Shown in pieces: positions 20,061 through 30,581 of a DNA stretch of 64,000 nt. The notes beneath the pieces were generated by a model. It did not search any database. It worked only from the letters and a program-made list of their open reading frames with translations, and was not told the DNA's origin. The position numbers and the translations under genes were made by a program. The DNA comes from Afipia sp. (GTDB taxonomy: Bacteria > Pseudomonadota > Alphaproteobacteria > Rhizobiales > Xanthobacteraceae). The stretch spans positions 1 through 64,000 of the forward strand of contig JAFVHU010000155.1 of assembly GCA_017474385.1 (NCBI GenBank). Reading direction: 5' to 3'. Every line of letters begins with the position of its first letter. Position 1 is the stretch's first letter.

Positions 20061-21176
20061 TCATAGAGCAGGTTCGGTCTGCGCGGTGTCCTGCCGCATC
20101 CGGTAGAAGCGCAGCACCTGTTGCGCGGTTGAAGGGCGCAACATGTCGTAGCTAGACTTGTGATCGTCGATGTTCTCGATCTCGGTTCCGGACGTGTTGC
20201 CGCACATTTCAAGAACAAGCTTGAGCGACATCCACGATAGTCCCGCGACCTTGGCGAGGACCAGCAATCCCTCTGAGCGCGACTCGATCATCATGTTTTC
20301 GACGGTCGCGACCGGAACGTTAGCGCATACAGCAATAGCAGCACTGGTTTCCTCGAAGCGCCCGGACGCCGCGAACTCGGCGATCTGCCTTTCGTCGAGA
20401 CGTCCGTCTTCGAAGAGGGATTTGACGAGACGCATCGCCGGGGATGTTTCGCCGCGCGCGGATGCTCCGTGGCCGGCGTTGAATGCCGCTTCCTTGACGG
20501 CGGCCGAGATATCGTCCGCGGCGCGGGGGTTTGCAGCCTGGAGGCGCGCTCGTACAGAGTCCGACGCTCTCGCAATGAGCTTGAGATAGTGAGGTCTTGG
20601 AATTCCTCGCCGTGCTCCGAGACAAGTGGCGAGATTATCATTGCCCTCGGCGCGGGAGACCAACTCCGTAAAGCCTTTGTCGGAGAATTCTGCGCCTGGA
20701 TTGTTGACGGCGCTCTCAACGACGTCGTTGTTGCCGCATTCGACCAGAACGTCGGTGACGGCGTCGCTCAGGACTTTTCGTTTTGAAATCGCGAGCAAAT
20801 GACCCTGGCTTTTGCTGCGCGCGTTTTTGATCAGCATGTCGTCGTTCAGCCGTTCCGAGAGCGACAGCACCGGTGCGGCGACCTCGATCTCGTCGTCGAA
20901 GGCAAGCGTGTAGATCAGGCGCGGCGGCGCTTTCGGTACTGGCGCCATGCGTTTCGCCAGCAGGGCCTTGGCGGAGATCTCGATTTCCTCGATCAGACAA
21001 TGAAAGACGTCATCGAAGACATTGATCTGCTCGTCGGAGTAATCCGCCACACCATACAGAAAGAGATCGGTGACCCGGCGCAGCGTTTCCACGCGGCGCG
21101 CTACGGTGCCATGTGCGAGAGCGTTCTGCAGTTCATCGAGAAGATTGGCCGGCCGTGCTGTTGGTCTCGAACTCAT
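20061..21176 (-). CDS. DUF2336 domain protein
   Basis: 371 residues of the DUF2336 family, which is largely restricted to alphaproteobacteria. The sequence is a series of helical HEAT-like repeats (LLDELQNALAHGTVARRVETLRRVTDLFL, LSDAVTDVLVECGNNDVVESAVNNPGAEFSD). No catalytic residues or membrane segments are visible. Members are often linked to signalling or motility genes. Here it follows a diguanylate cyclase gene by 67 bp on the same strand. A second member is at 60247-61245. The start at 21176 is chosen because the in-frame extension upstream is not family-like. Function unknown. Confidence 0.8.
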   Translation of the reverse strand: MSSRPTARPANLLDELQNALAHGTVARRVETLRRVTDLFLYGVADYSDEQINVFDDVFHCLIEEIEISAKALLAKRMAPVPKAPPRLIYTLAFDDEIEVAAPVLSLSERLNDDMLIKNARSKSQGHLLAISKRKVLSDAVTDVLVECGNNDVVESAVNNPGAEFSDKGFTELVSRAEGNDNLATCLGARRGIPRPHYLKLIARASDSVRARLQAANPRAADDISAAVKEAAFNAGHGASARGETSPAMRLVKSLFEDGRLDERQIAEFAASGRFEETSAAIAVCANVPVATVENMMIESRSEGLLVLAKVAGLSWMSLKLVLEMCGNTSGTEIENIDDHKSSYDMLRPSTAQQVLRFYRMRQDTAQTEPAL

Positions 21177-21243
21177 GACTTTCTGTCCTGGAAACACCGA
21201 AGCGAGAAATGCCAGCCAGGTTCTTGGCCGGCGTAAATGGAAG

Positions 21244-22404
21244 CTAGGCTGAGACAACCCGATTCCGCCCTAGGTCTTTGGCTTGATAAAGAAGTTGATC
21301 GGCGCGGGCGAGAATGCTGTCCGCAGTATCGTCCGCTCGCAACATGGCCACACCGGCCGACATTGTGACACTCATCTCCTGCGAAATCGCGCTCCAGTCG
21401 AGAGCGCCCACGATGGCGCGCAGCCGATCGACAGTCCGCAGCGCTGCGCCATCGGACGTTTCCGGGAGAATGAGCAGGAATTCCTCGCCGCCATAGCGGC
21501 CGAATTTGTCGATGCTGCGGATATTGGCGAACACGGTGATCGCAAAGGCCCGCAGCGCTTCGTCGCCGACGGGATGTCCGAACCGGTCGTTAATGCGCTT
21601 GAACCAGTCGAGATCGATCAACGCGACAGCACAGGGCGTTTTGCCGCGCCGGGAGCGGGCGATCTCTTCGTCGAGCGTCTGCATGATGCTGCGCCGGTTG
21701 AGCGATCCGGTGAGTTCGTCAAGCTCGGCGAGTTCTTCGATGCGCTGGTAGGCTTCTTTCAGCTCGACGCCGCGCCTGTAGAGAGATTCGTGCAGCGAAC
21801 TGCTGAACAGTCCGACGACCATGCCGCGGCCGAGCACCAGAATGAAAACCAGCATGGTCGCGAAGCGCTCCAGCGGCGTGCTGGTCGGCATTCCGATGGG
21901 TCTATCCGAGAGAAGAAACAGGACTGTCAGGCCGATGGCGGCGGCCGTCCATCCGATGATGGTCTGGCGGGGCGTCGATCGCAACGCCGCGAAGGTAAAG
22001 ACGAGGAAGATGGAGCAAAGGAACAGGCAGCCGACTTCGGGCGCCAGGTAGATGAACAGCAGCATGATCCCCAGGCTGGTGCCGGTTTGCTGCGAGATGA
22101 AGTAGTGGTCTCTAAACTTGTCGTTGACCTTGGCTTCCGAGATCGCAATGTAGGCCGCTACGGACAGCAGGCCGGCGGCTGCGTAGGCCGGCGCAACCAT
22201 GAAGCTGGTGGCGCCCGCATAGGCGTAGATCAGCAGAATTCCGGCATCGATCATGTAGCTGACGCCGACCATGTCGAGCATCTGCCGGTGCTGCCTTGCA
22301 CGTCGCGCAACAATCTCCGGCGACAATTCGTTCTCGACGGCGGAATGCCTCCGGCCGAGAGCGCCTGTCAGGGATCCGGGGGCCGATGAAGCTGCGCCGC
22401 GCAT
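21244..22404 (-). CDS. Membrane diguanylate cyclase (GGDEF domain)
   Basis: 386 residues. Six hydrophobic segments (about residues 40-200) are followed by a short coiled linker and a GGDEF domain. The active-site loop is RYGGEEFLLILPE, so cyclase activity is expected. An inhibitory RxxD site (RSID) lies exactly five residues before GGEEF, which predicts product inhibition by c-di-GMP. No EAL domain is present. The N-terminal membrane part has no recognised sensor family. The start at 22404 fits GGCGAG upstream; 35 more in-frame codons appear non-coding. It is divergent from an ECF sigma gene and may be co-transcribed with the DUF2336 gene. Confidence 0.9.
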   Translation of the reverse strand: MRGAASSAPGSLTGALGRRHSAVENELSPEIVARRARQHRQMLDMVGVSYMIDAGILLIYAYAGATSFMVAPAYAAAGLLSVAAYIAISEAKVNDKFRDHYFISQQTGTSLGIMLLFIYLAPEVGCLFLCSIFLVFTFAALRSTPRQTIIGWTAAAIGLTVLFLLSDRPIGMPTSTPLERFATMLVFILVLGRGMVVGLFSSSLHESLYRRGVELKEAYQRIEELAELDELTGSLNRRSIMQTLDEEIARSRRGKTPCAVALIDLDWFKRINDRFGHPVGDEALRAFAITVFANIRSIDKFGRYGGEEFLLILPETSDGAALRTVDRLRAIVGALDWSAISQEMSVTMSAGVAMLRADDTADSILARADQLLYQAKDLGRNRVVSA

Positions 22405-22535
22405 GAACTCGCCGTTAAGGAAAAGCAATGCGGGACTGTAGGCGGGAAAGCCTTTAGGTTTGGTATCATTGGAGTGGCTTGTGGAACTGGTGGGCTCCCC
22501 GAACCACAATAATCACCTGTCGGGATGATCCAGAT

Positions 22536-22605: not shown

Positions 22606-23277
22606 TTGCGCTTCGCTAATCCGGCAGTTTCCGGAAATCGCGAAGATTTTCACGGATTTGATCGAACCTTTTTCCAGTCGCGTGCGACCAACCTTGCGAG
22701 ACGGCCATTGAGTGCAACCCACGCGACGTCGGACGAGGTTCTGATCGGTCGCATCGCCCAAGGTGACCGGCTCGCGATGCAGGTGCTTTACGGGAGGCAC
22801 CATGTACGGGTGTTTCGCTTCTCGCTGCGGCTCGTGCGGAACGAGTCCATCGCGGAAGATCTCATCAGTGAGGTTTTCCTCGATGTGTGGCGTCAGGCCG
22901 GCAAGTTTGAAGGCCGGTCTGCTGTCTCTACGTGGCTGCTGGCGATCACCCGGTTCAAGGCCCTGTCCGCCCTCCGCAAGAGGAAGGACGCGGAACTGGA
23001 CGACGAAACGGCTGCCGCGATCGAGGATACGTCCGACAATCCGGAAGTCGCCGTCGCCAAGAAGGATACGAGTAACGCATTGCGGAATTGCCTGACCGCA
23101 CTTTCGCCAGAACATCGGGAGATCGTCGATCTCGTCTACTACCACGAGAAGTCCGTGGAAGAGGTGGCCGAAATCGTGGGCATCCCGGAGAATACGGTGA
23201 AGACGCGCCTGTTTTACGCGCGGAAGAAATTAGCCGAACTGCTGAAGGCAGCCGGCATAGAGCGAGGTTGGCCATGA
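22606..23277 (+). CDS. ECF sigma factor of the protease/OmpA/cytochrome locus
   Basis: 223 residues with sigma region 2 (FRFSLRLVRNESIAEDLISEVFLDVWRQAGKF, STWLLAITRFKALSALRKRK) and region 4 (LTALSPEHREIVDLVYYHEKSVEEVAEIVGIPENTVKTRLFYARKKL). The predicted start is a TTG at 22606; the first 35 residues are not conserved-looking, and an in-frame TTG at 22708 is an alternative. The stop overlaps the anti-sigma gene in ATGA. The four genes that follow are all exported or membrane proteins, so this factor probably controls an envelope function. Confidence 0.88.
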   Translation: MRFANPAVSGNREDFHGFDRTFFQSRATNLARRPLSATHATSDEVLIGRIAQGDRLAMQVLYGRHHVRVFRFSLRLVRNESIAEDLISEVFLDVWRQAGKFEGRSAVSTWLLAITRFKALSALRKRKDAELDDETAAAIEDTSDNPEVAVAKKDTSNALRNCLTALSPEHREIVDLVYYHEKSVEEVAEIVGIPENTVKTRLFYARKKLAELLKAAGIERGWP

Positions 23278-23948
23278 CTGCCACGAGCAAGCAAACCGCC
23301 GATCGGGAGCCCACGGAGCTTGAGGCTCTGTTGCCGTTCCATGCGGCGGGCACGCTCAACCTGCGTGATGCCCGCCGCGTCGATGAGGCGCTCGCCAGCG
23401 ATCCCGATCTGGCGCGCCAGTATGCGGCGATCCAGGACGAATATGCCGAAACGATTTTGCTGAACGAGAGCCTCGGCGCGCCGTCTTCGCGGGCCATGCA
23501 GAAGCTGTTTGCGGCCATTGACGCCGAGCCTGCGCGCAAGAGCGCGTCGTTTAACCCGCTGATGCGGATTGTCGGGTTCTTCTCCAGTCTGTCGCCACGC
23601 ACGCTGGCTTATGCAGGTGTCGCCGGTGCGGTGCTGGTTCTGTTGCAGGCGGGTGTTATCGGAACCGTGCTGGTCAAGGATCGCGCGGGCGGCAACTTCC
23701 AGACGGCCGCGTTCCCGGCCCAGTCGACCGGGGGCACGTTCGGCTTGCTTCGGTTTACGCCGGACGCAAAGGCTGACGAGATCACGCAGTTGCTAAACAC
23801 CTACAACGCGTCCATCGTTTCGGGTCCGAAGGCCGGTATGTTCCGCGTCCGGTTCGGCGACAAAGTCTTGTCGAAGCAGGACGCGGCGCAGCTTATGACG
23901 CGCCTCCAGGCCGAAAAGATTGTCAGCCTCGTGGTGAGCGCCGACTGA
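23274..23948 (+). CDS. Membrane anti-sigma factor with a propeptide-like periplasmic domain
   Basis: 224 residues. A cytoplasmic helical part (LEALLPFHAAGTLNLRDARRVDEAL) resembles anti-sigma domains without a zinc motif. One membrane helix lies at about 111-134. The periplasmic domain (about 150-224) reads as beta-alpha-beta-alpha-beta: GLLRFTP, DEITQLLNTYNASIV, MFRVRFG, QDAAQLMTRLQAEK, IVSLVVS. That order matches the inhibitor-I9-like propeptide of the downstream subtilase. Role by family and position: sequesters the ECF sigma factor whose gene it overlaps by 4 bp. Inferred: the periplasmic domain may dock to the protease. Confidence 0.8.
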   Translation: MTATSKQTADREPTELEALLPFHAAGTLNLRDARRVDEALASDPDLARQYAAIQDEYAETILLNESLGAPSSRAMQKLFAAIDAEPARKSASFNPLMRIVGFFSSLSPRTLAYAGVAGAVLVLLQAGVIGTVLVKDRAGGNFQTAAFPAQSTGGTFGLLRFTPDAKADEITQLLNTYNASIVSGPKAGMFRVRFGDKVLSKQDAAQLMTRLQAEKIVSLVVSAD

Positions 23949-24046
23949 CCTGGGCTTGGCCGACAACCACGGCGTCAAGCCTCGGGCGGAGAGGGACCTG
24001 ACCCGCGCGCCGCGCTGGCGCATCCATGAATGTGCGAGGACGTCAG

Positions 24047-25531
24047 ATGACCGAGACAGGCAAGAGCAAGCGGGGCTTCATCCGAAGGGCACGTCTGATC
24101 CGGCCCGTGCGGCTAGTCGCCGTCTTCGCGGTCTCTCTTTGCCTCACATCTCCGCAGGCCTTCGCGCAGTACAACGGCATGAGCATGCGCACGGGACCCA
24201 GCATGAATGTTGGTCCGCGCATCAACATCAATCCGACGATCCGCTATTCGCCGAACCTCCGGTATGACGGATACGACGATCCCGGGCCGCGTCCGCGCAT
24301 CATGCGGAATCTGGATCAGGGGGCGCCCGATGACATTTCGCCTCGCAAACGCCCCGGCAAAGCGAAGTCCACGCCAGCTACTACCGAAAATACGTACGTC
24401 GCGAAGGAAGTGTTGATCGAGATCGCGGGTAATCCGACCGATGCGCAGGCCGACGACATCGCGCGGCGCCATCGCCTGACGCGCGTTCAGTCGCAGAGTT
24501 TCGCACTAACCAACAGCACATTCTTCCGCTGGCGGATAACCGACGGGCGCTCGGTCGATGCCGTGGTGCGCGAGCTGGTCGCCGGCGGCAACGTCAAGGC
24601 GGCGCAGCGCAACAACATCTTTAAGCTGCAACAAAATGCAACGCCGGGAGCCGCCAAACCCGAGGGCGACCCTGTGCAATATGCGCTCGCCAAGATGCGG
24701 CTGCCCGAGGCACACGCGCTCTCGGTCGGCGCGGACGTGACGGTTGCCGTGATCGATTCAGGGATCGATGTGACCCATCCCGAACTGGCCGGTGTGATCA
24801 CCGGGACGTTCGACGCGCTCAACAACGGCGAAGGACCGCACCCCCACGGCACCAGCATTGCAGGCGTTATCGCCGCGCACGCGCGCCTGATGGGAACGGC
24901 GCCGTCCTCGCATCTGCTGGCGATCCGGGCGTTTGGCAATCAGAAGAGCGGCGCTGAAAGCACCTCGTTCCTGATTCTCAAGAGTCTCAACTATGCGCTC
25001 GCGAAAAATGCGCGGATCATCAACATGAGCTTTGCCGGTCCGCACGATCCTGCCATGGAGCGCGGTCTTGCCGCCGCCGCGGCCAAGGGCGTCGTTCTGG
25101 TGGCTGCTGCCGGCAACGCCGGCGCGAAGTCTCCGCCGCTCTATCCGGCAGCCGATCGCAATGTAATCGCGGTGACGGCTATCGATCAGTCCGACAAGCT
25201 GTTTGCTCAATCGAACCGCGGCAGTTATGTCGCGATCTCTGCGCCTGGCGTCGATATTCTGTCACCGGCACCCGACGGCAAATATCAGATGTCGTCCGGC
25301 ACTTCGCTGTCCGCGGCTTATGTCAGCGGCGTGGCGGCGCTGATGATCGCGCGCAACCCCGGAATTTCCCCTGCCGACGTTCGCGCCACATTGATATCGA
25401 CCGCGCGTGATCTTGGACCCAAGGGCCGCGACGATCAGTTCGGGGCAGGGCAGGCTGACGCCTTTAGCGCGGTTTCAGCGGTCGCCCCGGCTCCAGTGGC
25501 TGCGGCATCCGATAACGGTGACAAACGCTGA
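24047..25531 (+). CDS. S8 family serine protease (subtilisin-like), secreted
   Basis: 494 residues. A basic N-terminus and signal peptide end at QAFAQ (about residue 40). A low-complexity Met/Asn/Arg-rich stretch follows, then an I9-like propeptide (about 115-200, VLIEIAGNPTDAQADDIARRH...). The peptidase domain has the full triad: Asp237 in VIDSGID, His267 in HGTSIAG, Ser420 in GTSLSAAY. It should be secreted to the periplasm or outer surface. ATG 24047 has GAGGA seven bases upstream; ATG 24026 lacks one. It is the third gene of the sigma/anti-sigma block and could be both a regulon member and a regulator of the anti-sigma factor. Confidence 0.9.
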   Translation: MTETGKSKRGFIRRARLIRPVRLVAVFAVSLCLTSPQAFAQYNGMSMRTGPSMNVGPRININPTIRYSPNLRYDGYDDPGPRPRIMRNLDQGAPDDISPRKRPGKAKSTPATTENTYVAKEVLIEIAGNPTDAQADDIARRHRLTRVQSQSFALTNSTFFRWRITDGRSVDAVVRELVAGGNVKAAQRNNIFKLQQNATPGAAKPEGDPVQYALAKMRLPEAHALSVGADVTVAVIDSGIDVTHPELAGVITGTFDALNNGEGPHPHGTSIAGVIAAHARLMGTAPSSHLLAIRAFGNQKSGAESTSFLILKSLNYALAKNARIINMSFAGPHDPAMERGLAAAAAKGVVLVAAAGNAGAKSPPLYPAADRNVIAVTAIDQSDKLFAQSNRGSYVAISAPGVDILSPAPDGKYQMSSGTSLSAAYVSGVAALMIARNPGISPADVRATLISTARDLGPKGRDDQFGAGQADAFSAVSAVAPAPVAAASDNGDKR

Positions 25532-25780
25532 CGAACGCGCCGGCTGAACCCGGCACATCTTTCCTGCGACCAACTCTTGCCGGTGACGAATTCCTCGTTT
25601 CCAGCAGCCTGAATGGTGCGGGCGCCCATCCACCCTCGCGCCGCTCTGGTTTGGCCCGTCCGGTCGTCCCCCCGGGCGGGCCGTCATATTGGGCGGCGGG
25701 TTTTCATACGAATTTTGCTGCGCAATGCATTTTTGTGAAAGACACTGCGGCATGCAGAATCAATTTGCGGGAATGGAATT

Positions 25781-26404
25781 GTGACGCGAACGGCCCTGAT
25801 TTTGACGCTGGCCTTCGCCGTCTGTCCCGCGTCGCTTCACGCTCAGTCGCTCGAGGACAATATTGGCTCGGCGCTGCAAGCGAAGCAGCCGCTGACGCGC
25901 AGTCTTACGGCGACGCAGGATTCCAAGGCAGCTGCGGAGAAGCAAATAATCGATCGTTTGCGAACGCGCTCGATCAGTGTCGAAGCTGTTCAGGCGCCAA
26001 CCGCGGACGAACGGACGCAGATTGCGGAAATCGCGCGTGACAAGCCGGCGATCGATCTCGAAATCCTGTTTGAATACAATTCAGCCGATATCAGTCCGAA
26101 GGCGATGCCCGCGCTGGCCGCGCTCGGCAAGGCGTTGTCGCGGCAGGATCTGAAAGGCTCAGTGTTTTTTATCAATGGCCACACCGATGCGGCAGGCGGC
26201 GCGGACTACAATCAGTTGCTGTCGCAACGCCGTGCCAATTCGGTGCGGCGCGTTCTGGTCGAGCAATACAGGCTCGTACCCGATACCCTGATCGCGGCAG
26301 GTTTTGGCAAGGAGCAGTTGAAAAATCCGGCCAATCCGCTTGGCCAGGAAAACCGCCGCGTGCAGATCGTGAATACCACCGTACAGGCTGCGGCGAAGCG
26401 ATGA
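25781..26404 (+). CDS. OmpA-family protein (peptidoglycan-binding C-terminal domain)
   Basis: 207 residues with a signal peptide ending LHAQ (about residue 22). A short charged helical region and a complete OmpA-like domain (about 88-200) follow: LEILFEYNSADISPKAMPAL, INGHTDAAGGADYNQLLSQRRANSVRRVL and NRRVQI. The Asp and Arg of the peptidoglycan-binding site (GHTDAAG, SQRRANSV) are present. There is no beta-barrel and no lipobox, so it is a soluble or peripheral periplasmic protein. The GTG start follows GCGGGAATGGAATT. The 249 bp before it contain a GC-rich hairpin (25653-25682), so a separate promoter is possible. Confidence 0.88.
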   Translation: MTRTALILTLAFAVCPASLHAQSLEDNIGSALQAKQPLTRSLTATQDSKAAAEKQIIDRLRTRSISVEAVQAPTADERTQIAEIARDKPAIDLEILFEYNSADISPKAMPALAALGKALSRQDLKGSVFFINGHTDAAGGADYNQLLSQRRANSVRRVLVEQYRLVPDTLIAAGFGKEQLKNPANPLGQENRRVQIVNTTVQAAAKR

Positions 26405-26469
26405 CCGCCTGAACGCGCCGGGACGTTGATGCGACCAATACAAGGCGTTGCCAGTCTTGAGGGGACGAT

Positions 26470-28764
26470 ATGAACGGGTTTCCGGTGTTTGGTCCACGCG
26501 CGATCGGCTTGATGGTTGCGGCGGGGCTAACGTTCGGTGTGACGGACGCGTCGCTGGCGCAGGATGCGAAGGCGCCGGGTGCAGCCCCCATGGAAGCGCT
26601 CGTGTCGCCCTCCGATCCGACCGCCAAAGCAGCGTTCGATGTTCTCGACAAGCACTGCGCGCGTTGCCATCAAACCGGCAAGCTCGTGGATCGCGAGCGG
26701 CCCGCAAAGAACTTCGGCAACATCCTCAAACTCGATGAAATCGCCGTCAATCCGCATTACGTTTTGCCGGGCAACCCGCTGGGCTCGAAACTGTTCCGGC
26801 AGATTGCCGACAAGGAAATGCCTTACGACATCTATTACGAAGGCTCGTCGCATGCGCCCCCTTCGGAAACCGACCTTAAGGCGCTTGAAAATTGGGTCGC
26901 AGCGCTCGGCACAAAAGCGGTCGCCAGTTGTGAAAGCCACAAATTCGTCGAGCCCGAGGACATGGTGTCCTTGATGGTGTCGGACCTCGACAAGCAGCGG
27001 CCGCGGCGTCGGGCGACAACCCGCTATCTGACGCTGACGCATCTCACCAACATCTGCGTCGATCCGGCGGCGATGAAGGTCTACCAGCAGGGCGCGGTGA
27101 AGTTTCTGAATTCGCTGAGCCGCTCGTCTGACGTGGTGAAGCTTGAGACTGTCGATTCCGAGGGAAGCATCCTGCGCTTCAATCTGCTCGACCTCGGCTG
27201 GAAGGCTGCCGACTGGGATAACGTGATCGCGGTGTATCCCTACAATGTCGTGCCGGACAATGAATTCAGCCGCACGCTCGCGTCCGGCGCGGGGACGCCG
27301 ATACCGTATGTGCGCGCCGACTGGTTCGTGTTCACAGCGTCGCAGCCGCCGCTTTACGACGTCCTGCTGCGGCTGCCGAACGCCTTCCAGCAGCTTGCGC
27401 GGGAGCAGGGCATCGACGTCGAGGGCAATATCCGCAACTTCGTCGCGCAGCGTGCGGCGTTCCAGCGTTCCGGCGTCAGCCAGAACAACCGTCTGATCGA
27501 GCGCCATCCCTCGCGCAACGGATTTTTCTGGACCTCGTACGACTTCGCCGGCAACCGCGACCGTCAGAGCCTGTTCAGCTTTCCGCTGGGCCCGACCGGC
27601 CCGGACGCGTTTCATCATGACGGCGGCGAGACCATCTTCAGCCTGCCGAACGGTTTTCAGGCGTATTACCTGAACACGGCCAAGGGTGATCGGCTGGACA
27701 AGGGGCCGACGGCTATCGTGCGCGATCCGTCGCGCAAGGATTTCGCTGTGACCAACGGCATCTCATGCATGGGGTGCCACGACCAAGGCATGCGCAAAGC
27801 CAAAGACGAAGTCCGCGAACTGGTGCTGAAGGGGCGGACCTTCCCGAAGGATGTGCGCGACGCGGTCGAAGGACTGTATCCTCCGCACGACAAGATGGAT
27901 GCGCTGATCGAAGACGATGCGAAGCGGTTCGCGGACGCGATGAAGCGGGCGGGGCTCGATTCAACGCTGAAGCTGAACGGTATCGAGATGATCAACGCGC
28001 TTGCCAAGCGTTACGAGGACGACCTCGACCTGACGCTCGCCGCCTCCGAGCTCGGTCTCAAAAAGTCCGAATTCAATGAGGGCGTCGCGGATGTCGATCA
28101 GAAATTCCGGCCGCTTGTCCGGCGCCTCGCGCAGGGCGCTGTTCCCCGCGATCAGTTCGAAGCGGCATTTCGTGAAATCGCACCGGATCTGACCGATCTG
28201 AAGGTCGTCGCGGTCAGGAACGCGCGTCAGCCCGAACAGGTGACGAAACCGATCATCGTCAACAGGGACGACCTTTCCCTGACCTCGGATCAGGACAGCT
28301 ATCGTCTCGGCGATACCCCGGTCTTTACCATCGTGTCGCCGCGCGACTGCTTCCTGACCCTGACCGACATCGATGAACGGGGTGAGGGCACCGTATTGCT
28401 GCCGAACACTTTCCAGCGCGATAACTTCATCAAGGCGGGGGTACCGATCCGCTTTCCGGGCGCTGGTGCGCCGTTCCAATTCCGCATGAAGGACAAGGGC
28501 ATCGAGACGGTGACGGCCGTGTGCGCGACGCAGGCCAGCGGCGGCGACCGTATCCAGCACGACTTCCAGAAGAACCAGTTTACCCCGGTACCGAATTACA
28601 CCTCGGCCTTGGCCCGCTCGATTGCGGTGGAAGCGGTCAGGCCAGGCACGCCCTCGGTCGCAGGGACCACCAACGCCGGTGCCACCGCCGTTTCCGGCCG
28701 CGAACCACCGCCGGCAGGGTCGCGGCAGTCGCTTCGGGCCGCGATCAGGCTGCAGGTGCGTTGA
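26470..28764 (+). CDS. Secreted di-haem c-type cytochrome fused to a DUF4384 domain
   Basis: 764 residues. A signal peptide (cleavage near residue 30, SLAQDA) leads a cytochrome c-like domain with CARCH at 63-67 and the usual ending LENWVAALG. A long middle region (about 165-430) without a family I know follows, then a second haem motif CMGCH at 433-437. The C-terminal DUF4384 domain (about 595-690) contains SYRLGDTPVFTIVSPRDCFLTLTDIDERGEGTVLLPN. DUF4384 domains are usually joined to caspase-like or kinase domains in envelope systems. Joined to two haem motifs it suggests a redox-sensing or electron-transfer part. It closes the sigma/protease/OmpA block. Confidence 0.8.
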   Translation: MNGFPVFGPRAIGLMVAAGLTFGVTDASLAQDAKAPGAAPMEALVSPSDPTAKAAFDVLDKHCARCHQTGKLVDRERPAKNFGNILKLDEIAVNPHYVLPGNPLGSKLFRQIADKEMPYDIYYEGSSHAPPSETDLKALENWVAALGTKAVASCESHKFVEPEDMVSLMVSDLDKQRPRRRATTRYLTLTHLTNICVDPAAMKVYQQGAVKFLNSLSRSSDVVKLETVDSEGSILRFNLLDLGWKAADWDNVIAVYPYNVVPDNEFSRTLASGAGTPIPYVRADWFVFTASQPPLYDVLLRLPNAFQQLAREQGIDVEGNIRNFVAQRAAFQRSGVSQNNRLIERHPSRNGFFWTSYDFAGNRDRQSLFSFPLGPTGPDAFHHDGGETIFSLPNGFQAYYLNTAKGDRLDKGPTAIVRDPSRKDFAVTNGISCMGCHDQGMRKAKDEVRELVLKGRTFPKDVRDAVEGLYPPHDKMDALIEDDAKRFADAMKRAGLDSTLKLNGIEMINALAKRYEDDLDLTLAASELGLKKSEFNEGVADVDQKFRPLVRRLAQGAVPRDQFEAAFREIAPDLTDLKVVAVRNARQPEQVTKPIIVNRDDLSLTSDQDSYRLGDTPVFTIVSPRDCFLTLTDIDERGEGTVLLPNTFQRDNFIKAGVPIRFPGAGAPFQFRMKDKGIETVTAVCATQASGGDRIQHDFQKNQFTPVPNYTSALARSIAVEAVRPGTPSVAGTTNAGATAVSGREPPPAGSRQSLRAAIRLQVR

Positions 28765-28925: not shown

Positions 28926-29255
28926 ATGACCACCCCTGGCAATGCCCAACATGGGCGAAGTGTCGTAACGCGCTGGCGCATGCTCGCGGAGCGACGGCTC
29001 AACTACCTGGTTGAGCTTTACGAGACCGGCCGCTGGAAGGCCTATTACAGCGAGCCGGAATTCCTGAAGGTCATTCAGGAAGCCCGGGCGGCACTGAAAA
29101 CGTGGGAGCAGCTTGCTCCGCCTGATCCGGTTCAGGACAAGCCGGTCGAGGTAGCGATGGCGCAGGCCGCGAACTCCGCCATTCCCGCATCGCCTTTCGC
29201 AGATATTGCGTCAGCGCACGGCGTTAAGGCCAAGGACAATCTGCGCAAAGCGTGA
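28926..29255 (+). CDS. TIGR03809 family small protein
   Basis: 109 residues. The core WRMLAERRLNYLVELYETGRWKAYYSEPEFLKVIQEARAALKTWEQLAP matches, from memory, the TIGR03809 family of Bradyrhizobium-type bacteria, whose genes typically sit next to a TIGR03808 gene, as here. It is soluble with no signal peptide. The function is unknown. The C-terminal 30 residues are Ala-rich and variable. Its 3' end overlaps the convergent TIGR03808 gene by 45 bp. Confidence 0.75.
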   Translation: MTTPGNAQHGRSVVTRWRMLAERRLNYLVELYETGRWKAYYSEPEFLKVIQEARAALKTWEQLAPPDPVQDKPVEVAMAQAANSAIPASPFADIASAHGVKAKDNLRKA

Positions 29256-30581
29256 GGTTCCGTCTGCGCCGAGATCGTTGGTTACCGCCTTGGCATGATC
29301 CAATCCGACGATCGCGCCGCCCCTCGATCCTGAAATCAGGTTGTTGCTGACCAGCGCGGTGCCGGCCCCCGGCACCACCGACACCCCGATGCCGACGAAG
29401 GAATTGCGCAGGACGTTGCCGGTGATGGTCACATCGCGGAGGTATTTTCCCCAGCCGGCCATGATCCCGAACGAGGGGGCATTCTCGATCACATTGCTGG
29501 TGACGGCGGCGTCCGCCTCCACCACGATGCCGATACCGGCGTCGTCGTCCGGCGCTGTCCCGATCGGGCGCTTTGGCAGGATGTTCCGGATGACGTTGCC
29601 GTGGACGGTCACCATGCGGCCGCCCTCGTTGAAATTCGCGACCGACACGCCGACCGCGCAGACATCGACAGTATTGTTGGCGATCACCGCACCTTCGAAT
29701 GCGAATTCCGAATAAAGCGCGACTTCGCGAACGTTGCTGACGCTGTTGCCGGTGATCTGGATGTTCGAAGCGGAGTTGCCGCGTACGGCGGAATAATCGC
29801 AGTTGCGGATGCGGTTGCCGCTCACAATGACATTGCCCGCGCGGAAGGCGTTGATGGCATTGCCGTGCTGGCCGGAGCCGCCGGGACCAGCCTTGATATC
29901 GTCGATGCGGTTATTGACGACGATGGTGCCGTCATCACCCATCGTATGGCGGAGGATTTCGATGCCGTTGTCGGACGCGTCCTGAATTGTGTTCTGTGCA
30001 ACGAGCAGTCCAAGCGCATCGAACGAGGTGAACGCGGTGTTTGCGGTCTTGCGGATGGTGTTGCCGCTGACTTCGCCCGCAATGCTTTCGAACCAGATGC
30101 CGTATCCACCGCTGCCGACGATGTCGCAATCCTGCACGCGAACATCGAGGCCGTTCTGAAAATGAACAAGTCCGCGCCGGTCGGCGAGCTTGATGCCGGC
30201 ACCATCAAGCGCGAGGCCGGTGAGGGTGATGCCGCTTGCACCTTCGCTAGCTATAAGCGACGCGCCACCTGTAAACTTCAGGACTGTTGCACCGCGCACA
30301 CCGACAAGCTGGCCGCCGTTCGGCAATCGCAATGCGCCGGTGCGATAGGCGCCCGGCGGCAGCGCCAGCGGCATCTGCGCGCTGGCGGCCGCATCGATGG
30401 CGCGCTGGAGCACTTTCGTTTGATCGTCGGGACTGTTTGGCCGCACGCCGTACTGCGTGGCGTCGCGTCCGAGCGTCGATGTAAGGGGAGCCGCGCGCGC
30501 AGGCTCAGGCGTAGCCGCCAGCGCACCTGCTGCCGCACCGGCGGCGGTGGCGTTGATGAGGCTGCGGCGGCTGATATCCAT
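29211..30581 (-). CDS. Tat-exported beta-helix repeat protein (TIGR03808-like)
   Basis: 456 residues. The N-terminus MDISRRSLINATAAGAAAGALAA is a twin-arginine signal. The mature part starts like a pectate-lyase-type right-handed beta-helix (GVRPNSPDDQTKVLQRAIDAA, PPGAYRTGALRLPNGGQLVGV). Many parallel coils with repeated N-x-I/V segments follow (GNTIRKT, NNRIDDI, GNRIRNC, GNSVSNV, NNTVDVC). This matches TIGR03808, known as a Tat-exported repeat protein of Bradyrhizobiaceae. No catalytic residues are assigned. A role in polysaccharide binding or cleavage is only an inference from the fold. Confidence 0.82.
   Translation of the reverse strand: MDISRRSLINATAAGAAAGALAATPEPARAAPLTSTLGRDATQYGVRPNSPDDQTKVLQRAIDAAASAQMPLALPPGAYRTGALRLPNGGQLVGVRGATVLKFTGGASLIASEGASGITLTGLALDGAGIKLADRRGLVHFQNGLDVRVQDCDIVGSGGYGIWFESIAGEVSGNTIRKTANTAFTSFDALGLLVAQNTIQDASDNGIEILRHTMGDDGTIVVNNRIDDIKAGPGGSGQHGNAINAFRAGNVIVSGNRIRNCDYSAVRGNSASNIQITGNSVSNVREVALYSEFAFEGAVIANNTVDVCAVGVSVANFNEGGRMVTVHGNVIRNILPKRPIGTAPDDDAGIGIVVEADAAVTSNVIENAPSFGIMAGWGKYLRDVTITGNVLRNSFVGIGVSVVPGAGTALVSNNLISGSRGGAIVGLDHAKAVTNDLGADGTSRFAQIVLGLNAVR

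What the first reader, a model, noticed from the sequence alone, without database searches (positions are those of the whole stretch)
22606..28764. Envelope-stress-like block: ECF sigma, anti-sigma, subtilase, OmpA protein and di-haem/DUF4384 protein
Five collinear genes, the first two coupled by ATGA, join a sigma/anti-sigma pair to three exported proteins that normally do not occur together. The last protein joins two CxxCH haem sites to a DUF4384 domain. The set looks like a self-contained system: sigma switch, protease, peptidoglycan anchor and a redox-capable sensor or effector.
Basis: partly seen in the sequence, partly recalled or inferred. Interest (0 to 1): 0.75.

Follow-up and report, generated by a model that had tools for sequence, protein, structure and literature searches.

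The report
Subtilase-linked sigma switch with small RNA
A bacterial stress switch pairs a gene-activating sigma factor and its membrane-bound inhibitor with a neighbouring protease; the inhibitor's outer end resembles the protease's own prodomain, and the switch probably controls a small RNA of unknown function and, in this genus, a haem protein.

Summary
The five genes are real, but they are not one conserved system. The conserved unit is ECF sigma, membrane anti-sigma and S8 subtilase: 49 of 51 genomes of the order with the anti-sigma have the subtilase beside it, as do 11 of 11 loci read outside the order. OmpA and the di-haem/DUF4384 gene are a genus-level (Afipia) addition.

Two things were missed. 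First, the periplasmic end of the anti-sigma resembles a subtilase prodomain (profile match to the neighbour's own prodomain, 88%; Pfam Fervidolysin prodomain in 9 of 33 members). A conserved [FY]xTA[SA] motif lies between it and the membrane helix. Second, GAAC-N18-GACYAA occurs exactly three times in the 64 kb: before sigma, before an sRNA after the subtilase (Rfam Rhizobiales-2), and before the haem gene.

Best reading: the subtilase docks on its prodomain-like mimic and makes the first cut in the anti-sigma, freeing a sigma that amplifies its own operon and drives the sRNA and, in Afipia, the haem gene. Module, promoter set and prodomain resemblance rest on sequence; docking and cleavage are inferred. 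New variant of a known kind.

The parts
22662..22691 (+). Promoter P1 of the sigma operon, TCGAACC-N16-CGACCAA
   Evidence: Exact spacing and halves in 77 of 80 named loci, one-base variants in the other 3; 0 mismatches in the window
22708..23277 (+). ECF sigma factor, start TTG 22708 (not 22606)
23274..23948 (+). Membrane anti-sigma factor, ATGA-coupled to sigma
23616..23675 (+). Predicted membrane helix of the anti-sigma (most hydrophobic 20 residues)
23697..23711 (+). Motif FQTAA (family motif [FY]xTA[SA]) just outside the membrane; candidate first cleavage site (inferred)
   Evidence: 72 of 73 named loci with subtilase; position
23733..23945 (+). Prodomain-like periplasmic domain at the C-terminus of the anti-sigma
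24047..25531 (+). Exported S8 subtilase (reading frame open from ATG 24026)
24398..24628 (+). Subtilase prodomain
   Evidence: Pfam PF22148 in 17 of 30 relatives
24728..25450 (+). Peptidase S8 catalytic domain
25544..25573 (+). Promoter-like site P2, about 10 nt before the Rfam sRNA start
25583..25682 (+). Rhizobiales-2 sRNA (RF01723), ending in a terminator-like hairpin
   Evidence: 67.7 bits, gathering 40; fold of 23 relatives
25781..26404 (+). OmpA-domain protein (genus-level addition)
26409..26438 (+). Promoter-like site P3 of the haem/DUF4384 gene
26470..28764 (+). Exported di-haem/DUF4384 protein (genus-level addition)
26656..26670 (+). First CxxCH site
   Evidence: invariant in 12 aligned relatives
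27766..27780 (+). Second CxxCH site
   Evidence: invariant in 12 aligned relatives
28297..28533 (+). DUF4384 domain

Best explanation
A protease-gated ECF sigma switch. At rest the membrane anti-sigma holds the sigma factor. Its periplasmic end is a prodomain-like domain onto which the exported subtilase encoded next door docks, as it would on its own prodomain. When envelope damage frees, matures or repositions the subtilase, the protease makes the first cut in the anti-sigma at the conserved [FY]xTA[SA] motif just outside the membrane; a general intramembrane protease completes release. Free sigma transcribes its own operon, subtilase included (positive loop), the Rhizobiales-2 sRNA in the family Nitrobacteraceae, and the di-haem/DUF4384 gene in Afipia. 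Supported by sequence: the conserved trio, the promoter set, the sRNA, the prodomain resemblance, the motif. Inferred: docking, which bond is cut, the intramembrane step, the signal, the sRNA targets.
For: Subtilase beside the anti-sigma in 49 of 51 genomes of the order (by eye), in 73 of 80 named loci and in 11 of 11 loci read outside the order. Anti-sigma C-terminus against the neighbour's prodomain: 88%, score 33.3 over 64 columns in register; best of 300 column shuffles 18.9. Pfam PF22148 in 9 of 33 anti-sigma C-termini, best E 6.2e-5, and above its cut-off in one full-length anti-sigma from outside the order (21.7 against 21). Motif [FY]xTA[SA] in 72 of 73 loci with subtilase; of three loci that lost the subtilase one keeps it strictly. 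Same promoter type before sigma, sRNA and haem gene.
Against: Three loci lost the subtilase but keep the anti-sigma domain. The window's own domain alone matches SPOR (E 0.0085) and not the prodomain. Only 3 of 10 full-length anti-sigmas scanned show PF22148 at E up to 1, one of them above cut-off. The SPOR comparison (24.2) also exceeds its own shuffles (20.8) and rises to 26.3 and 55% with more sequences. A profile search of solved structures found no prodomain. No structure prediction, no experiment. In a sister arrangement the protease is a known sigma target without proof that it acts on the anti-sigma (PMC6180224).
Confidence: 0.45

Rival explanations
1. The subtilase is only an output of the sigma (an envelope quality-control protease); the anti-sigma is opened by another signal or protease, and its C-terminal domain senses something else.
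For: Subtilase lies in the sigma operon; in S. meliloti the serine protease SMa0142 is a target of RpoE6 (PMC6180224, section 7). The anti-sigma survives without subtilase in three loci.
Against: The prodomain resemblance to the neighbour and the motif between membrane and domain would be coincidences.
Confidence: 0.27
2. Opposite polarity: bound subtilase keeps the anti-sigma locked, as a prodomain-enzyme pair; damaged envelope proteins draw the protease away and the anti-sigma is then opened by a different protease.
For: Prodomains are tight inhibitors of their enzymes (general knowledge); the anti-sigma ends a few residues after the last predicted strand, near where a prodomain tail enters the active site (alignments; inference).
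Against: Does not explain the conserved motif; with the subtilase gone the switch should be always on, yet three loci live without it.
Confidence: 0.15
3. The C-terminal domain is a SPOR-like peptidoglycan sensor.
For: Pfam SPOR matches 5 of 33 members, best E 9e-5, including the window's own domain at 0.0085; profile score 24.2 against a shuffle maximum of 20.8, 26.3 with more sequences.
Against: Only 27 columns align, and the second half of the domain meets the first half of SPOR; the prodomain aligns over 64 columns in register.
Confidence: 0.08
4. The reader's five-part self-contained system, with OmpA anchor and haem sensor as working parts of the switch.
For: 16 of 17 genus genomes with the haem gene have it at this locus; sigma-type promoter before it in 11 of 15 loci examined.
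Against: Ten genus genomes have the anti-sigma and no haem match; none of the 74 named loci not titled Afipia shows OmpA or haem beside the trio (some are cut by contig ends); elsewhere the haem protein has other neighbours.
Confidence: 0.05

Closest known systems
RpoE6-EcfR6 and serine protease SMa0142 of Sinorhizobium meliloti, group ECF26 (PMC6180224, passages and section 7)
   Same: ECF sigma, membrane anti-sigma with periplasmic domain, neighbouring serine protease that is a sigma target; on Sinorhizobium and Agrobacterium plasmids an S8 peptidase lies divergent from a sigma gene
   Different: Protease is divergent, not downstream; published promoter GGAATA/GT, here TGAACC/CGAC; the Agrobacterium anti-sigma has a different outer domain with no prodomain match. 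That these plasmid genes are RpoE6/SMa0142 relatives was judged by arrangement, not tested
RseA/RpoE with site-1 protease DegS (PMC8103513, passage)
   Same: Works like it in the proposed reading: first periplasmic cut of a membrane anti-sigma frees an ECF sigma
   Different: Protease is a subtilase encoded in the sigma operon; docking through a prodomain-like domain; cleavage not shown here
ECF54 sigma factors with subtilase in context (PMC8999054, passages)
   Same: ECF sigma with subtilase neighbour
   Different: ECF54 is described without anti-sigma; here the anti-sigma is constant
Rhizobiales-2 RNA, RF01723 (PMC2864571, table passage)
   Same: The sRNA after the subtilase is a member above the gathering score
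   Different: Listed in 2010 as a candidate motif with a '?' in the table column I take for cis-regulation; here it gets a sigma-type promoter of its own and a genetic home
Fervidolysin-type subtilase prodomain, PF22148
   Same: Anti-sigma C-terminus and the neighbouring subtilase's prodomain both match it in part of their members
   Different: In the anti-sigma it sits at the C-terminus of a membrane protein with no protease attached

Membership tests
ECF sigma / membrane anti-sigma pair | Sigma with regions 2 and 4 only, coupled to a gene with cytoplasmic N-terminus, one membrane helix and periplasmic C-terminus | tested here: met
ECF sigma / membrane anti-sigma pair | Anti-sigma binds and inhibits the sigma | not testable with these tools
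   Needs a binding or reporter test
ECF sigma / membrane anti-sigma pair | Autoregulated ECF-type promoter | tested here: inconclusive
   Conserved site before sigma in 77 of 80 loci, variants in 3, and with a loose pattern in 18 of 20 loci of other families; sigma dependence not shown
Peptidase S8 (subtilase) | S8 domain with Asp-His-Ser triad | tested here: met
Fervidolysin-type prodomain (PF22148), anti-sigma C-terminus | Score above the curated cut-off | tested here: inconclusive
   Not met by the window's own domain; met by one full-length relative, 3 of 10 scanned match at E up to 1; Sphingobium 20.4 against 21; 9 of 33 members match at E up to 10
Fervidolysin-type prodomain (PF22148), anti-sigma C-terminus | Prodomain fold | not testable with these tools
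   Structure prediction switched off; profile match 88% to the neighbour's prodomain
SPOR (PF05036) | Score above cut-off and full-length match | tested here: not met
   Window domain 16.8 bits against 21; 27 columns only in profile comparison
Group ECF26 (RpoE6 type) | -35 GGAATA promoter and ECF26-type anti-sigma C-terminus | tested here: not met
   Promoter here TGAACC/CGAC; C-terminus unlike the Agrobacterium protein. Formal ECF group assignment was not run
Rhizobiales-2 RNA (RF01723) | Score above the gathering threshold, full model | tested here: met
   67.7 bits against 40, model 1-103 of 103
Regulated intramembrane proteolysis of anti-sigma (RseA type) | Site-1 then site-2 cleavage | not testable with these tools
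   Only a candidate motif

The most novel reading that the evidence does not exclude
A class-wide alphaproteobacterial signalling family in which the anti-sigma's sensor is a tethered subtilase prodomain: the protease recognises, is held by and finally cuts a mimic of its own prodomain, converting protease state directly into transcription, with the orphan Rhizobiales-2 RNA as the sRNA arm in Nitrobacteraceae.
Probability: 0.4. Interest if true: 0.78.

Novelty: new variant of a known kind. Interest (0 to 1): 0.62.

Why it matters
If true, a common alphaproteobacterial stress switch uses a prodomain placed on an anti-sigma factor as its periplasmic sensor, a new way of coupling protease state to transcription. 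It also gives an RNA family listed in 2010 a likely promoter, a likely regulator and a place in a pathway. Both can be tested with single-gene deletions in a laboratory Bradyrhizobium.

Tried and rejected
Five-gene block as a conserved unit: rejected. Nine genomes of the 199 besides the own one have both the anti-sigma and a haem or DUF4384 match, none at the same place (read).

SPOR sensor: considered seriously and disfavoured, not excluded.

Solved-structure searches: the anti-sigma C-terminal profile gave four hits, best E 0.16, unrelated; the haem protein two hits, best E 0.099, unrelated.

Larger regulon: TCGAAC-N18-GACCAA with up to one mismatch in the own genome gave 18 matches against 16 for the backwards control; four were exact, the sigma promoter and three others, none of which I could read as a clear promoter. 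My genus-wide pattern search was set one base off in spacing by mistake, so it says nothing about the true regulon; it found nothing in the own genome and 36 scattered matches in 29 genomes. No search was left to repeat it.

Pattern controls that are weak: the pattern taken from the sigma promoter alone, with up to 3 mismatches, gave 9 matches in the window against 8.5 expected; the sites before sRNA and haem gene are among them at 2 and 3 mismatches. In a weight-matrix scan built on the sigma promoters the sRNA site scores 13.0 and the haem site falls below 9, while 6 of 20 mononucleotide shuffles of the window hold some site of 9 or more, up to 20.4. The stricter GAAC-N18-GACYAA was chosen after seeing the sites.

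Adding class-level rows did not raise the prodomain score (31.7 and 83%, against 33.3 and 88%). On rechecking, the full-length Pfam result (3 of 10) and the SPOR score above its shuffles made me lower the novel case from 0.45 to 0.40 and the prodomain resemblance from about 0.8 to 0.75.

Literature: searches of an open library showed me no report of a prodomain-like anti-sigma domain or of a regulator of Rhizobiales-2. I read passages or one section, no whole paper; most subscription papers are not held.
Full report
WHAT IS THERE. The five reading frames are real and collinear. Pfam and NCBIfam give an ECF sigma factor (NF009168, 346.5 bits, cut-off 236), an anti-sigma-like protein with no Pfam match, an S8 subtilase, an OmpA-domain protein and a protein with DUF4384. 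The last has CxxCH at residues 63 and 433, both invariant in the 12 proteins aligned. The window is Afipia or very close: the nearest named loci are Afipia.

WHICH GENES BELONG TOGETHER. In 199 genomes of the order 51 have the anti-sigma, 117 some relative of the subtilase and 33 some match to the haem/DUF4384 protein, several of these to DUF4384 only. Comparing positions by eye, 49 of the 51 genomes have the subtilase within about 2.5 kb of the anti-sigma; in the other two (G101, G167) the anti-sigma lies near a contig end. The anti-sigma follows in 80, the subtilase in 73, the haem gene in 5 and OmpA in 4, the last two only in loci titled Afipia. Of the 7 without subtilase, L100, L139, L151 and L168 end near the contig edge. 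In L109, L125 and L134 the next conserved gene follows directly, and their genomes hold no comparable subtilase (no match in two, E 2.9e-7 elsewhere in the third; the genomes are MAGs and may be incomplete). In the class search 13 of 289 genomes had a match, the own genome included. I read the neighbourhood of 11 of the other 12, leaving out the weakest (G295); all 11 carry sigma, anti-sigma and subtilase, in L268 with the anti-sigma on the other strand. In the genus (29 genomes) 26 have the anti-sigma and 17 the haem gene; in 16 of the 17 the haem gene lies at this locus, and the 17th (G211) shows no anti-sigma match. Ten have the anti-sigma and no haem match. So the widespread unit is a trio, and OmpA and haem genes are a genus-level addition.

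THE ANTI-SIGMA'S OUTER DOMAIN. After the membrane helix comes a motif [FY]xTA[SA], a variable linker, and about 70 residues that end the protein. Their pattern suggests beta-alpha-beta-beta-alpha-beta, as in a subtilase prodomain (my reading, not a prediction). The profile of 33 such C-termini (A5) against the prodomains of 30 subtilases (A6) gives 88.0% and score 33.3 over 64 columns in register. A first version with 30 and 30 sequences gave 90.7% and 34.9, with 200 column shuffles reaching at most 18.8; the anti-sigma N-terminus and the catalytic domain aligned over only 14 and 20 columns (their scores were not printed), and a reversed profile gave 0.4%. 300 shuffles of A6 reach at most 18.9 (one shuffled run of that script stopped with an error). 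Independently, Pfam's Fervidolysin prodomain (PF22148) is the family with most matching members in A5 (9 of 33, best E 6.2e-5) and in A6 (17 of 30, best E 1.4e-6). Among 10 full-length anti-sigmas it appears at E up to 1 in 3, one above its cut-off (L261, outside the order, 21.7 against 21); Sphingobium reaches 20.4. SPOR domains of related genomes (27 of 30 fetched loci used) score 24.2, above their shuffle maximum of 20.8, but over 27 columns and out of register; the subtilase prodomains do not resemble SPOR at all (0.3%). With 12 more sequences the prodomain gives 31.7 and 83%, SPOR 26.3 and 55%, shuffles at most 17.3. I rate prodomain-like at about 0.75.

THE MOTIF. [FYW]xTA[SAT] was scored in 78 of the 80 named loci (two truncated ones dropped): present in 72 of 73 with subtilase (L153 reads YQVAS) and 3 of 5 without. 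Of the three real losses L109 keeps FDTAA, L134 reads FKIAS and L125 has no such motif. In 26 diverse anti-sigmas of the order a looser form (any residue for T) is present in 24, the strict one in 23 by my reading; in 11 class-level ones the strict form is in 7 (read). By alignment to subtilisin and by counting from the last prodomain strand, the self-processing site of the window subtilase could be FKLQ|Q (position), which shares the aromatic residue four before the cut. This is suggestive only; the true site is unknown.

PROMOTERS AND THE sRNA. The sigma promoter TCGAACC-N16-CGACCAA is exact in its halves and spacing in 77 of 80 loci; the other 3 differ by one base. A loose TGAACC..CG[AT]C version precedes sigma in 18 of 20 loci of other families. 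In the window GAAC-N18-GACYAA occurs three times, at 22664, 25546 and 26411; 100 shuffles averaged 0.15 and none reached 3. The pattern was chosen after seeing the sites; the sigma-derived pattern with up to 3 mismatches gave 9 matches against 8.5 expected, so the count alone proves little and conservation carries the argument. The site lies 67 to 95 bases before the haem match in 11 of 15 further genus loci, once at 243 before a partial match (L285), and is missing in 3. Spacers 14 to 22 give 0,0,0,0,18,0,1,0,0 matches in 16 genus loci and 0,3,4,34,97,0,1,0,0 in the 80 loci; these genomes are related, so the matches are not independent. Of the 97, 79 are sigma promoters; 32 of the 34 at spacer 17 lie within 300 nt after the subtilase, and 42 of 70 loci have a site there at spacer 17 or 18. 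That second site led to a conserved unit after the subtilase: Rfam Rhizobiales-2 (window 67.7 bits, gathering 40). It is above gathering in 7 of 7 loci, 3 of 20 (only those of the window's own family) and 6 of 13 (not in L094, L095, L096, L102, L125, L260, L261). An exact core was found in 64 of 80 loci and the window, and 65 of 65 have a promoter-like site just upstream under a relaxed pattern. The Rfam start lies about 10 nt after the window's GACCAA. The fold of 23 sequences has 29 pairs, 10 with changes on both sides in at least one sequence (covariation term only -1.65), and an unpaired, invariant C-rich stretch CAUCCACCC, which could pair with ribosome-binding sites (inference). The RNA was listed as a candidate in 2010 (PMC2864571, table passage) and later reported from one Herbaspirillum genome by prediction (PMC6337395, table passage). 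Because the sRNA ends in a terminator-like hairpin, P2 is best read as its promoter. OmpA may be reached by read-through, or from the sigma operon as in L095 and L096, where OmpA follows the subtilase closely and P2 and sRNA were not found.

THE HAEM/DUF4384 PROTEIN ELSEWHERE. Of 16 loci of the order fetched, 15 could be placed (L225 gave no row). The haem gene lies within six genes of cluster c1 (caspase domain plus DUF4384) in L224, L226, L227, L229, L230 and L238, and of OmpA-like proteins in L224, L230, L236, L237, L238 and L239. Family names were tested on representatives (c1 in L224, L226 twice and L230; c3 = OmpA in L224) and carried over by cluster. So haem plus OmpA is a recurrent pair that in Afipia seems to have come under this sigma.

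MECHANISM. From sequence: module, promoter set, sRNA, motif, prodomain resemblance. Inferred: the subtilase docks on the domain and cuts at the motif, a general site-2 protease finishes, sigma amplifies the operon. Three loci keep the domain without the protease, the main observation against a strict lock-and-key view.

COMPARISON. Closest is S. meliloti RpoE6-EcfR6 with its protease target SMa0142 (PMC6180224, section 7 read). Sinorhizobium and Agrobacterium plasmids have an S8 peptidase divergent from a sigma gene, but the Agrobacterium anti-sigma has another outer domain and the published ECF26 promoter differs. ECF54 has subtilases in context without anti-sigma (PMC8999054, passages). RseA/DegS works by a first cut with another protease (PMC8103513, passage). 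I therefore call this a new variant of a known kind.

Noticed in passing
   Followed up: partly
L109, L125, L134 (after the anti-sigma): Three Nitrobacteraceae MAG loci have lost the subtilase; the anti-sigma domain stays, the [FY]xTA[SA] motif is changed in two; Rhizobiales-2 is above gathering in L109 and L134, not in L125.
   Followed up: partly
window 23263-23274: The sigma ends in RGWP, invariant in 21 sigmas aligned from different families; role unknown.
   Followed up: no
L135: A record titled Frankia sp. RB7 has the Bradyrhizobium-type gene order and an 89% identical sigma; probably a misnamed or mixed assembly.
   Followed up: no
G211, G213, G514 (genus genomes): A second, 56-59% identical haem-protein paralogue lies at another place.
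   Followed up: no
L243 3195-5032: A Sphingobium plasmid carries sigma, anti-sigma with zf-HC2 plus a near-cut-off prodomain match, and an S8 protease in a row.
   Followed up: partly
window 20061-22509 and 28926-30581: The trio sits in a stable frame: a DUF2336 protein and a GGDEF protein upstream, TIGR03809 and TIGR03808 proteins downstream, kept in most of the 80 named loci.
   Followed up: no
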